Assembly (NCBI RefSeq): GCF_014652575.1
Contig: NZ_BMZB01000004.1
Coordinates: 186,001 to 250,000 of the forward strand
Direction: 5' to 3'
Length of the DNA stretch: 64,000 bases
Source: Asticcacaulis endophyticus
Lineage (GTDB): Bacteria > Pseudomonadota > Alphaproteobacteria > Caulobacterales > Caulobacteraceae
In this document: positions 6,571-60,522 of the stretch, one piece after another
Numbering within the stretch: position 1 is the stretch's first letter
How the letters are laid out: each line of letters opens with the position of its first letter
Notes under the pieces: generated by a model
What the model was told of the DNA's origin: nothing
The model's database searches: none
Seen by the model: the letters and a program-made list of their open reading frames with translations, nothing else
Made by a program: the position numbers and the translations under genes

Positions 6571-6771
6571 ATGGTAAAAATCCTGCTGAATGGCGAATCC
6601 AGAGAGGTTGGCGCGGCGAATATTCTGGCCCTGATCGAAGAGATCGGAATCGAAGCCCGTAAGCTGGCGGTCGAGCAGAATCTCGAAATTGTGCCGCGCT
6701 CACAGTATCATGCGACGGCTATTCATGACGGCGACCGGATCGAGATCGTTCATTTCGTCGGTGGGGGATAG
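6571..6771 (+). CDS. thiS: sulfur carrier protein ThiS
   Basis: A 66-residue ubiquitin-fold protein ending in the diagnostic Gly-Gly (FVGGG), whose C-terminus is thiocarboxylated to donate sulfur for the thiazole ring of thiamine. The start at 6571 ([13 protein letters not shown]) gives the normal size; the frame runs upstream to 6469 but that part is repetitive and basic. The best partner is thiG, 120 bases downstream, separated by two hairpins. I see no TPP riboswitch upstream in the short aroQ-thiS divergent region. Confidence 0.92.
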
Positions 6772-6776
6772 CGTTT

Positions 6777-6871
6777 CACTCAAAAGTTTCGGCGGCATAA
6801 GCCGCCAAATACGTTTTGAGTGGTTCAATATCGAAAATCTCAAACTCGGGGCGGCCCTTCGTTTGAGATTT
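6777..6871 (+). repeat. paired-hairpin element, copy 1 (between thiS and thiG)
   Basis: Two consecutive hairpins fill the thiS-thiG gap. Hairpin 1 has outer arms CACTCAAAA (6777-6785) and TTTTGAGTG (6814-6822), enclosing GGCGGC-ATAA-GCCGCC (6791-6806). Hairpin 2 has an 11-bp perfect stem, AAATCTCAAAC (6835-6845) with GTTTGAGATTT (6861-6871), around the 15-nt loop TCGGGGCGGCCCTTC. A second element with 14 of 15 loop bases identical but a different, still perfectly paired stem lies between sufT and sufA. The pattern suggests selection on structure. Whether it acts as attenuator, processing site or mobile repeat is unknown. Confidence 0.75.
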
Positions 6872-6891
6872 GCTTTAATAGGAAAAATATA

Positions 6892-7689
6892 ATGGCGTTG
6901 GATCAGATTGTGACGAGTGCAGATGACACATGGACCGTGGCGGGGCGGACGTTTTCGTCGCGTCTGATCGTCGGTACGGGCAAGTATAAGGACTATGCCC
7001 AGAATGCGGCGGCGGCACGGGCATCGGGTGCTGAGATCGTCACCGTGGCGGTACGCCGGGTTAATCTGACCGATCCAAACCAGCCGATGCTGATGGATTA
7101 CGTGAAACAGGACGAATTCACCTACCTGCCCAATACCGCCGGATGCTTTACTGGCGAAGACGCGGTGCGAACCTTGCGTCTGGCGCGTGAAGCCGGTGGC
7201 TGGAATCTGGTCAAGCTTGAGGTTTTGTCCGACCCTAAGACACTCTATCCCGATATGGAAGAAACCCTGCGGTCGTTAAAACTGCTGGTCACAGACGGAT
7301 TTGACGTGATGGTCTACTGCTCGGACGATCCGGTCTACGCCAAGAAACTGGAAGAGGCGGGGGCGGTTGCCATCATGCCGTTGGGCGCGCCGATCGGATC
7401 GGGCTTAGGTATCCAGAACAAAGTCACCCTGCGCATTATTATTGAGAACGCCAAAGTGCCGGTGCTGGTCGATGCCGGTGTCGGCACAGCGTCGGATGCG
7501 GCGGTCGGCATGGAGTTGGGCTGCGATGCCATCCTGATGAACACCGCTATCGCTGAGGCCAAAGATCCGATCCGCATGGCCGTGGCGATGAAGCACGCCG
7601 TCATTGCCGGTCGCGAAGCTTACCTTGCCGGGCGTATGCCGAAAAAGCTTTATGCCGATCCGTCATCGCCGCTGGCGGGACTTATCTAG
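6892..7689 (+). CDS. thiG: thiazole synthase
   Basis: A 265-residue ThiG that assembles the thiazole phosphate moiety of thiamine from deoxyxylulose 5-phosphate, dehydroglycine and ThiS-thiocarboxylate. The start at 6892 gives [14 protein letters not shown]; the upstream in-frame codons (from 6820) are the hairpin region and not family-like. [14 protein letters not shown], the Schiff-base lysine in [10 protein letters not shown] (about K108), [20 protein letters not shown] and [19 protein letters not shown] are present. Its 3' end overlaps the convergent glycosyltransferase gene by 8 bases. No thiO, thiE or thiC is in the window. Confidence 0.96.
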
Positions 7690-37776: not shown

Positions 37777-37866
37777 CACCTTCAAAGTCCTTCGCTGCGC
37801 TCAGTGTACTTTGAGGGTGTTGTTAGATCGAAAAAATTATCTTGGGGCGGCCCTTCGATAATTTTT
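37777..37866 (+). repeat. paired-hairpin element, copy 2 (between sufT and sufA)
   Basis: Hairpin 1: CACCTTCAAAGT (37777-37788) pairs with ACTTTGAGGGTG (37808-37819), 12 bp with one G-T. Hairpin 2: AAAAATTATC (37832-37841) pairs perfectly with GATAATTTTT (37857-37866) around the loop TTGGGGCGGCCCTTC. That loop differs in one base from copy 1 (6846-6860), while the stems are unrelated in sequence. Both copies are preceded by ATCGAAAA and followed by a TTTGC-like stretch. Confidence 0.75.
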
Positions 37867-37915
37867 GCATTTATGTAAACTCAATGCCGCGAATGTCTTT
37901 TAAGGCTTAGTGATC

Positions 37916-38302
37916 ATGGAAACCGCTGTTTCTTTCCGACCCCGTCGACCGAGGCCTGCGATCGTCAGTTTGACGGACGCGGCGGCGAAGCAAGTCAAGG
38001 CGATTATGGCGAAAGCCGATAAGCCTTATGCGGGCCTGCGCGTGGGCGTGAAGGCCGGCGGCTGTGCAGGGCAGGAATATGTCTTAAGCTATGCCGAAGC
38101 GGCTGATCCGTTGGATGAGGTCGTAACCGATAAGGATGTCACCATCCTGATTGAGCCCAAGGCGGTGCTTTATCTGGTCGGTACGGTCATTGATTATGAG
38201 ACGACGAAACTGTCCTCAAAATTCGTGTTCAATAACCCGAATGAGACTGATGCCTGCGGGTGCGGCGAAAGCGTGACTATCACGCCGGTTCAGGCGGATT
38301 AG
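37916..38302 (+). CDS. sufA: A-type Fe-S carrier protein SufA/IscA
   Basis: A 128-residue A-type carrier that receives clusters from SufBCD and passes them to target proteins. The three ligand cysteines are C50 (KAGGCAGQEY), C114 and C116 (DACGCGES). The start at ATG 37916 has AAGG ten bases upstream; an in-frame GTG at 37910 is too close to that site. An Arg/Pro-rich N-terminal extension (FRPRRPRP) precedes the domain. It ends the SUF operon and overlaps the convergent STAS-like gene by 23 bases. Confidence 0.95.
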   Translation: METAVSFRPRRPRPAIVSLTDAAAKQVKAIMAKADKPYAGLRVGVKAGGCAGQEYVLSYAEAADPLDEVVTDKDVTILIEPKAVLYLVGTVIDYETTKLSSKFVFNNPNETDACGCGESVTITPVQAD

Positions 38303-42240: not shown

Positions 42241-42303
42241 AAACCGGCCTTATACACAGAATAGCCGTTTGGTGTAACAGCTATTCTGTGAAAAAGCCGG
42301 TTT
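42241..42303 (-). promoter_or_regulatory. nested hairpin between parE and the DEAD-box helicase gene
   Basis: Outer arms AAACCGGC (42241-42248) and GCCGGTTT (42296-42303) enclose inner arms CACAGAATAGC (42255-42265) and GCTATTCTGTG (42280-42290): 8 plus 11 perfect base pairs with an asymmetric internal loop (CTTATA/AAAAA). It may be the parE terminator or a helicase leader structure. The inner stem-loop core (AGCCGTTT...AGCT) matches the nested hairpin in the rne leader at 14351-14380. Confidence 0.75.
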
Positions 42304-59279: not shown

Positions 59280-59333
59280 TTCTACTGTGAGAGGCTGCGA
59301 ATAGCTGCCTCATAGAGAATTGATATTGAATAA

Positions 59334-59361
59334 AAGCGGCCCCGGAAATGGGGTCGTTTTT
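59334..59361 (+). terminator. intrinsic terminator of clpX
   Basis: AGCGGCCCC pairs with GGGGTCGTT (with G-T wobbles) around GGAAAT, followed by seven T residues. It lies between clpX and the radical SAM gene. Confidence 0.8.
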
Positions 59362-59409
59362 TTGCATTAAATGTTCTTGATTTGTTCTAGGAGGGTGTTA
59401 GCATGATGC

Positions 59410-60522
59410 ATGCCCATCCCAAAACTCAGGACCGATCCCATTGATGACGAAAACGCACTGCCTAATCGGTTGCGTAAAGGGCGGGGCTCTGTGTCTAATC
59501 GACCAAGCGGGCGGTTTAATGCGCCCGATCTTTATGAAATTGACGATGGCTGGACGCATGAGGAGCGGGCAGGACTTGAGCAGCTTAAAACCATTCTGGG
59601 GGTTGATACGGCCCGCAAGATTATCACACGCAATACGTCGACGGATATCGGTTTTGATCGCTCGATAAATCCATATAAGGGCTGTGAGCATGGCTGCATC
59701 TATTGTTTTGCGCGGCCTAGTCATGCCTATCTTGATCTGTCACCGGGGATAGATTTCGAGACACGGATTTTCCGTAAACCTGATGCCGCCAGACTGTTGC
59801 GGCAGGAATTGTCTGATCCGCGTTACAAACCCGCGCCGTTGATGCTGGGGATCAATACCGATGCCTACCAGCCGACCGAGCTCACAGAACGCATTACGCG
59901 AAGTCTTCTGGAGGTTCTGTTTGAGTTTCGTCATCCGGTGCATCTGATTACCAAATCCGCTCTGGTTCTGCGGGATATTGATATTCTGGGGCCTATGGCG
60001 ACCCTGCGGTTGGTGACGGTTATGTTGTCGATCACGACCCTGGACCGGCATCTGGCGCGGGTCATGGAACCAAGGGCGGCGACGCCACACAGGCGGCTGG
60101 AGACTGTGCGCGCTTTACATGAAGCAGGCGTACCTGTGGGGGTTATGGTGGCGCCCATCATTCCCGGCCTGACTTGCCATGAGATTGAAAATCTTGTGAA
60201 GGCGGCGGCGGACGCGGGGGCTATAAAGGCGGGCTATAATCTGGTGCGTCTGCCTTATGAAATCAAAATCCTGTTTGAGGAATGGCTGAGGCTTAATTTT
60301 CCGGATCGGGCCAATAAGGTATTGAACCATATCCGCCAATGCCGGGATGGCAAACTGAATGACCCGCAATTCGGCAGCCGCATGACGGGGCAGGGGCCTT
60401 ATGCTGATCTGATCGCCCAAAGGTTTGCGCTGGCGATTAAGCGCCACGGACTGAACTGGAGGCCGAGTAATCTCGACTACAGTCAGTTCCGTGGCGGTGA
60501 TTCGCAAATGGCGCTGTTTTAA
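59410..60522 (+). CDS. PA0069-family radical SAM protein
   Basis: A 370-residue radical SAM enzyme with the cluster motif CEHGCIYC (C92, C96, C99), preceded by the family sequence ITRNTSTDIGFDRSINPYKG. It is related to spore-photoproduct-lyase-like proteins and usually annotated as the PA0069 family; no reaction is established. The C-terminal region ends FRGGDSQMALF, typical of the family. It overlaps the convergent oxidoreductase gene by 4 bases. Confidence 0.9.
   Translation: MPIPKLRTDPIDDENALPNRLRKGRGSVSNRPSGRFNAPDLYEIDDGWTHEERAGLEQLKTILGVDTARKIITRNTSTDIGFDRSINPYKGCEHGCIYCFARPSHAYLDLSPGIDFETRIFRKPDAARLLRQELSDPRYKPAPLMLGINTDAYQPTELTERITRSLLEVLFEFRHPVHLITKSALVLRDIDILGPMATLRLVTVMLSITTLDRHLARVMEPRAATPHRRLETVRALHEAGVPVGVMVAPIIPGLTCHEIENLVKAAADAGAIKAGYNLVRLPYEIKILFEEWLRLNFPDRANKVLNHIRQCRDGKLNDPQFGSRMTGQGPYADLIAQRFALAIKRHGLNWRPSNLDYSQFRGGDSQMALF

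What the first reader, a model, noticed from the sequence alone, without database searches (positions are those of the whole stretch)
37777..37866. Two-copy paired-hairpin family with a conserved loop and covarying stems
The sufT-sufA and thiS-thiG gaps each hold two hairpins. The second hairpin has a 15-nt loop [TT/TC]GGGGCGGCCCTTC identical at 14 positions, while its stem is wholly different but perfectly paired in each (10 and 11 bp). Flanks share ATCGAAAA and TTTGC. Independent stems with a fixed loop indicate a functional RNA or a structure-selected repeat. Both copies sit inside sulfur-transfer operons, directly before the last gene.
Basis: seen in the sequence. Interest (0 to 1): 0.72.

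Follow-up and report, generated by a model that had tools for sequence, protein, structure and literature searches.

The report
Free-stem, capped intergenic hairpin repeats
The two hairpin pairs belong to a family of small repeated palindromes that sits between genes of Asticcacaulis bacteria: the stems differ from copy to copy yet stay paired, only the tip is conserved, and whole units are swapped between sister species at the same spot.

Summary
In detail: both gaps carry hairpins H1 and H2, the 15-nt H2 apex agrees at 14 positions and the stems pair fully. A covariance model finds 26 sites in this Asticcacaulis genome, a refined one 28, with hits in 21 of 25 genomes of the genus. In 75 distinct copies the stem is free in sequence but paired (1005 Watson-Crick, 5 G-U, 30 mismatched cells) under a nearly fixed cap, CTN-GGGGCGGCCC-NNCG. 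The sulfur link fails: neighbours include atp, pur, gap, dnaN-recF, dnaJ-dapB and ahp genes. At 104 orthologous places in four sister species 29 hold the same H2, 9 an intermediate, 15 a different one, 5 one on the opposite strand, 46 none. Elsewhere the same unit is a homogeneous repeat. Best reading (0.55): a modular REP/BIME-like DNA palindrome, no RAYT-type transposase found in this genome, replaced as units, with pairing kept. A role as intercistronic mRNA hairpin is inferred, untested. New variant of a known kind.

The parts
37777..37819 (+). H1 of the sufT-sufA copy: outer stem with AAAGT...TACTTT around a type B inner hairpin (CCTTCG...CTCAGTG); starts 5 nt after the sufT stop codon
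37820..37831 (+). linker with the conserved ATCGA
37832..37866 (+). H2 of the sufT-sufA copy: 10-bp stem with capped apex CTTGGGGCGGCCCTTCG (37841-37857)
   Evidence: model match 37817-37876, 65.4 bits
37867..37876 (+). T-rich tail (GCATTTATGT)
6776..6823 (+). H1 of the thiS-thiG copy, type A inner hairpin (AAAGTTT...AAATACGTTT)
6835..6871 (+). H2 of the thiS-thiG copy: 11-bp stem with capped apex CTCGGGGCGGCCCTTCG (6845-6861)
   Evidence: model match 6820-6882, 74.5 bits
37370..37771 (+). sufT-like gene (SUF_assoc), upstream neighbour
37916..38302 (+). sufA/iscA-type gene, downstream neighbour
6574..6771 (+). thiS, upstream neighbour
6892..7689 (+). thiG, downstream neighbour; end taken from locus L011 (ORF to 2370 there)

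Best explanation
H1-H2 is a modular, REP/BIME-like palindromic DNA repeat that occupies the gap directly behind stop codons, mostly reading with the upstream gene. Shown: a multi-copy family with an exchangeable H1 (types A, B, C) and an H2 whose stem is free in sequence but paired under a nearly fixed cap; presence in scattered other alphaproteobacteria; swap, flip or absence of whole units at orthologous sites with 84-99% identical upstream flanks. Inferred: the unit spread by copying, probably as a DNA hairpin recognised through cap and foot; stems differ mainly because one unit is replaced by another, and pairing is kept by selection on hairpin formation, perhaps helped by template switching between the arms; in the transcript the hairpins act as mild intercistronic punctuation (3'-end protection, partial termination), which makes the place behind a stop codon tolerable or useful.
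For: Copy number and genus spread. Covariation. Unit turnover: 29 same, 9 intermediate, 15 different, 5 flipped, 46 without H2, of 104; short gaps of 2 nt in 10 and 10 nt in 2 of 25 genomes at sufT-sufA. In a MAG labelled Stygiobacter ten copies share one stem (arm identity 0.96), in this genome arms are 0.46 identical, 25 distinct of 27. Mosaic layout: 22 of 48 H1 matches stand before an H2 (positions), and some units end in an inverted H1 (L016, L034, L294). Few G-U: GU:AC 2:7 against 51:26 (p=0.024).
Against: No transposase is tied to it: PF01797 is absent from this genome and no H2 lies in the nine PF01797 loci of the genus. Mobility was not seen directly (no clonal pairs). H1-H2 lacks the GTAG or CGTC tag of described REPs. 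The sense bias and T-run would also suit an RNA role. In units that were retained between species one-sided stem changes (13 without the basal pair) are as common as two-sided ones (12, five of them in rows with alignment gaps), so template switching is not demonstrated.
Confidence: 0.55

Rival explanations
1. A cis-acting RNA regulon: a protein or small RNA binds the cap in mRNA, the stem only presents it, and H1-H2 controls processing or stability of operon mRNAs.
For: Nearly fixed cap on free stems; upstream gene on the same strand in 61 of 88 copies, 12 on the opposite strand, 15 undecided; median 43 nt from stop codon to model start.
Against: 46 of 104 orthologous places lack H2; neighbours share no function; antisense copies inside the atp and ilv gene pairs; G-U scarce.
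Confidence: 0.2
2. H2 is an intrinsic transcription terminator or attenuator with a conserved tip.
For: A-rich 5' arm, T-rich 3' arm and a T-run behind the stem (T58 in 74 of 75); 8 of 54 clusters lie between convergent genes.
Against: Copies lie inside gene pairs expected to be co-transcribed (atpD-atpC, purC-purS, gap-pgk); antisense copies; a simple terminator scan does not list either window copy, though its loop limit may exclude them; ordinary T-tract hairpins have more G-U.
Confidence: 0.15
3. No mobility: the units are old alleles that diverged in separate lineages under a pairing constraint and were shuffled between species by ordinary homologous recombination in the flanks.
For: Conserved flanks around swapped units; at sufT-sufA G000 groups with G003, at atpD-atpC with G012 and G013.
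Against: The same stem at different loci of one genome (AAAAAATTATC at two sites, AGAAAATTTTC at two) and a homogeneous ten-copy family in another genome; flipped units at 5 of 104 places.
Confidence: 0.1

Closest known systems
REP sequences and BIMEs (repetitive extragenic palindromes, bacterial interspersed mosaic elements)
   Same: Dispersed extragenic palindromes, modular, single or in inverted arrangement, often close behind stop codons; definitions from passages of PMC12306157 and PMC3733652
   Different: Here the stem sequence is not conserved, only cap, linker and tail; no GTAG or CGTC tag; no PF01797 gene in this genome
REPINs and RAYT-mobilised REPs
   Same: Hairpin pairs that may spread by copying (search listings only)
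   Different: PF01797 in 4 of 25 genus genomes, not in this one; no H2 in the nine PF01797 loci
Intrinsic terminators
   Same: Stem with A-rich and T-rich arms and a T-run
   Different: Nearly fixed apex, positions inside co-directional gene pairs, antisense copies
Template-switch hairpin evolution (PMC8794818; abstract and opening text seen)
   Same: Would give perfect stems and two-sided changes without G-U intermediates

Membership tests
REP/BIME | multi-copy, extragenic, palindromic | tested here: met
   28 sites in the genome, in gaps between called genes
REP/BIME | copies share a consensus sequence, stem included | tested here: not met
   arm identity 0.46 in this genome; met in the Stygiobacter-labelled MAG, 0.96
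REP/BIME | GTAG or CGTC tag at one end | tested here: not met
   no such conserved columns beside H2; H1 feet were only inspected by eye
REP/BIME | mosaic or inverted arrangement of units | tested here: met
   inverted H1 behind H1-H2 at L016, L034 and L294; two opposed H2 at L178 and L254; not counted over all copies
RAYT-mobilised REP | Y1 transposase (PF01797) in the genome | tested here: not met
   0 in G000, 4 of 25 genus genomes, control rings in E. coli and C. vibrioides
Intrinsic terminator | GC-rich stem followed by a T-run | tested here: inconclusive
   T-run present, stems often AT-rich; the simple scan lists neither window copy
Intrinsic terminator | ends transcripts | not testable with these tools
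   needs 3'-end mapping
Known RNA family (Rfam 15) | match to a curated model | tested here: not met
   window at gathering score: only a tRNA; L008, L009, L271, L294 at E up to 1: nothing at the element positions
Sulfur-operon regulatory RNA | copies confined to sulfur-transfer operons | tested here: not met
   2 of the 26 sites are suf or thi; others include atp, pur, gap, dnaN-recF, ahp

The most novel reading that the evidence does not exclude
H2 is a new class of selfish or semi-selfish element propagated by hairpin structure and cap rather than by sequence: an unknown factor recognises cap and foot, and copying or repair can write a new, self-complementary stem.
Probability: 0.15. Interest if true: 0.8.

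Novelty: new variant of a known kind. Interest (0 to 1): 0.5.

Why it matters
Covariation under a fixed loop is normally read as proof of a functional RNA. Here it marks an intergenic repeat whose units turn over between sister species, so it is a test case for telling RNA-level selection from DNA-level upkeep or replacement of palindromes. It also shows that gene pairs such as atpD-atpC, purC-purS and gap-pgk are punctuated by exchangeable hairpins, and that at sufT-sufA many relatives have a 2-nt gap instead, so natural variants could be used to measure what such hairpins do to neighbouring genes.

Tried and rejected
Considered and rejected: sulfur-specific riboswitch (neighbours); known Rfam RNA; RAYT-driven REP in this genome; phage cargo (exact pattern, 0 stretches in viral contigs); chance. 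The window hit at 59315-59374 (21 bits) is a plain hairpin without the cap and was not counted. Template switching as the main cause of stem change was my favoured idea; after removing repeated comparisons the retained units show 12 two-sided changes (five in rows with alignment gaps) and 13 one-sided ones without the basal pair, while two-sided changes dominate (38 to 7) only where the unit as a whole is less than 0.84 identical.

Literature: searches (Caulobacter or Asticcacaulis with palindromic, hairpin or stem-loop repeats; top 15 and 12 rows seen) listed nothing on this family; searches gave REP, RAYT and template-switch papers; search 57 for the H1 core letters found one unrelated paper. 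Only open-licence PMC is held. The class-wide search (289 genomes) scored 18 candidates per genome, so its 2 positives (this genome and G242) are a lower bound; counts also rest on the best 133-150 first-look candidates per genome.

Dropped rows: the exact 14-mer is in 23 of 61 genomes; of 28 relative loci searched with the model, 18 matched and 10 did not, among them all six from outside the genus, which I take as chance. Of the 18, L046, L047, L050, L052 and L064 were left out of A6 as identical, near-identical or partial. Of 88 aligned copies 13 with the same stem and cap as another were removed for pair counts. Two reverse reads of palindromes were not counted as sites. In A6 one of five covariation measures (number of pair types) does not exceed shuffles (237 of 500). 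Alignments A1 and A2 were mis-set or poor in H1 and not used. The G-U control (218 T-tract hairpins) is blind to mismatch type but selected otherwise than H2 and may hold H1 hairpins. The first neighbour count had over-long gene starts; re-labelled it with distance limits.

Full report
What is there. The sufT-sufA gap and the thiS-thiG gap each carry two hairpins. H2 is AAAAATTATC / GATAATTTTT in the first and AAATCTCAAAC / GTTTGAGATTT in the second, both under C-T[T/C]-GGGGCGGCCCTTC-G. On the + strand both gaps fold better than all 200 shuffles (z -3.5, -4.2); the - strands fold well too (z -3.3, -7.9). Genes: SUF_assoc and ThiS above, a SufA/IscA-type protein above the subfamily cut-off, ThiG.

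Size of the family. The exact 13-mer is found 9 times in the 3.95-Mb genome, its reversed control 0 times; all nine have a paired stem. The model from these nine has 10 of 14 pairs with two-sided changes and 96% of cells paired against 67% in shuffles, and its score collapses in slid registers. It finds 26 sites at E up to 0.0011 in the genome, plus two reverse reads of palindromes that I do not count. The refined model (39 sequences) lists 28 distinct sites here and hits in 21 of 25 genus genomes, up to 29 in one. Only the best 133-150 candidates per genome were scored, so these are lower bounds. Record titles name the genus: contig lengths 1862507, 476822 and 280208 are those of G008, G019 and G017, i.e. 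Asticcacaulis machinosus, A. currens and A. aquaticus. Of 40 family genomes searched, the 37 outside the genus have no hit.

Anatomy. From 88 aligned copies, 75 distinct: the linker keeps A-T-A-N-N-G, the G in 74 of 75; stem positions 21-26 are nearly free and 18-20 mostly A; the cap is C-T-N-[GGG/GAA/GAG]-GCGG-[CCC/TTC/CTC]-NN-C-G with T29 and C35 in 75 of 75; behind the stem stands a T-run with T58 in 74 of 75. H1 is an outer stem ending AAAGT...TAC(N)TTT around an exchangeable inner part: type A GTTT...AATAC (21 pattern matches in the genome, 1 control), type B GTCCTTCG...CTCAGTGTAC (27 matches, 8 control), or a third form CATGGGGG...CCCCCATG (gap-pgk and ahpC-ahpF). By position, 11 of the 21 and 11 of the 27 lie directly before an H2 hit; the other 26 do not.

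Neighbours. NCBIfam models above cut-off give dnaJ-dapB, GAPDH, dnaN-recF, greA and efp; atpD-atpC, purC-purS, infC and, with the element in antisense, atpA/atpG, acetolactate synthase/ilvC and sdhB; a nitrate-type ABC permease and ATPase, ahpC-ahpF, and convergent ung and dnaQ. The partners of efp (inositol-monophosphatase-like) and gap (phosphoglycerate-kinase-like) and a XerC/D-like recombinase match below cut-off. So the sulfur theme is accidental. With distance limits, 61 of 88 copies have the upstream gene on the same strand, 12 on the opposite strand, 15 undecided; per ortholog cluster (54), co-directional pairs are 21 sense and 8 antisense (p=0.024); the median distance from stop codon to model start is 43 nt (61 copies). 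In the window H1 begins 4-5 nt behind the stop codon. Genes were called by a simple codon score.

Turnover. I located the 26 sites in four sister genomes; each of the 104 places was found, upstream flanks 84-99% identical, fetched and searched. By identity of the H2 core: 29 same (0.88 or more), 9 intermediate (0.80-0.87), 15 different (below 0.80; as few as three changed pairs, at L012, where H1 differs as well), 5 on the opposite strand, 46 without H2. Of the 46, 33 match loose patterns for other palindromic motifs (22 C/T-rich only, 2 C/T-rich and third-type H1, 9 H1-type) and 13 match none; these patterns have no shuffle control. At sufT-sufA, of 25 genomes G000 and G003 share the unit, G020 has an H1-H2 of its own, nine have the third hairpin type, G004 another hairpin, ten a 2-nt gap and two a 10-nt gap. 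At atpD-atpC G012 and G013 match this genome while G003 and G008 share another H1-H2. At site L014 G008 keeps H1, linker and outer stem with another loop; at infC G012 has an insert in the cap; at efp G003 keeps H1 and linker nearly unchanged while H2 differs at three pairs, all two-sided.

RNA or DNA. Of the paired cells of the 75 copies 1005 are WC, 5 GU, 10 AC, 20 other. Without the basal pair GU:AC is 2:8, or 2:7 after counting related copies once, against 51:26 in 218 ordinary T-tract hairpins (p=0.012 and 0.024). G-U is the usual intermediate under RNA selection (opening text of PMC8794818). Counts are small and the control was selected differently, so this is suggestive. Changes between orthologs: in the raw list with one to four changed pairs, 34 two-sided against 25 one-sided, but these repeat the same change over genomes. 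Counted once, units with whole identity of 0.84 or more show 12 two-sided (five in rows with alignment gaps) and 13 one-sided non-basal changes, the rest 38 two-sided and 7 one-sided. Hence stem novelty comes mainly with replaced units; template switching is not demonstrated.

Outside the genus. The pattern gives 41 stretches in the genome collection: 21 Asticcacaulis, 10 from one MAG labelled Stygiobacter, 10 others. Of the 20 non-Asticcacaulis stretches the ten of the MAG and four others match the model at E below 1e-6: Magnetospirillum moscoviense and Rhodospirillales, Hyphomicrobiales and Alphaproteobacteria MAGs; one Polaromonas stretch is weak (E 0.0011), five do not match; G242 of the same class has three. 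The MAG contigs are 62-65% GC, so its label is doubtful (Ignavibacteria are low in GC, recalled). Its ten copies share one stem and differ by single bases (arm identity 0.96), while the arms here are 0.46 identical, 25 distinct of 27. The same unit is thus an ordinary homogeneous repeat in one genome and a scrambled-stem family in another, the best evidence for spread by copying. No viral contig has the pattern.

Mechanism and comparison. It works most like REP/BIME elements: dispersed palindromes behind stop codons, modular, variable between relatives. It fails the tag and the conserved-stem tests of the described REP superfamilies, and this genome has no PF01797 gene (definitions from passages of PMC3733652 and PMC12306157; passages of PMC2267715, hold no mention of Caulobacter or of compensatory changes). 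I call it REP-like, not a REP. That a hairpin pair between cistrons protects the upstream 3' end or terminates in part is inferred from general knowledge of REPs (recalled); nothing here tests it.

Limits. No transcriptome, no strain-level data, several draft genomes, lower-bound counts, text searches limited to open-licence PMC.

Noticed in passing
own genome C1:490451-490513 and C1:492944-493006 (L024, L020): The F1 part of the ATP synthase genes carries two units: sense between atpD and atpC, antisense between atpA and atpG; G017 also has an antisense unit at the latter place, with a different stem.
   Followed up: partly
own genome L016, L034; Magnetospirillum moscoviense L294: Some units end in a further, inverted H1, giving H1-H2-inverted H1.
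   Followed up: partly
L369 (infC site, G012); L421 (purC-purS site, G008); L389 (G012): A small GC-rich palindromic piece (near GCGCTCAAGGAGCGAAGCGTTAGCGC or its reverse complement) appears inside the loop of H2 or H1: a nested insertion into hairpin loops.
   Followed up: no
L010, L013, L019, L027, L030, L031 sites in sister genomes: Where H2 is missing, C/T-rich palindromic repeats (CCCCCTC...GAGGGGGAG) often fill the gap, another repeat family of these genomes.
   Followed up: partly
L262, L271, L277, L279-L281, L286, L288, L291, L293: A genome record labelled Stygiobacter holds contigs of 62-65% GC with an alphaproteobacterial repeat; the label or binning looks wrong.
   Followed up: no
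window 59315-59374: Weak model hit (21 bits) that is a plain hairpin with a T-run and lacks the cap.
   Followed up: yes
window 42242-42303 and 60433-60505: Long imperfect inverted repeats (28 and 29 nt arms, 79% and 72% complementary) unrelated to this family.
   Followed up: no
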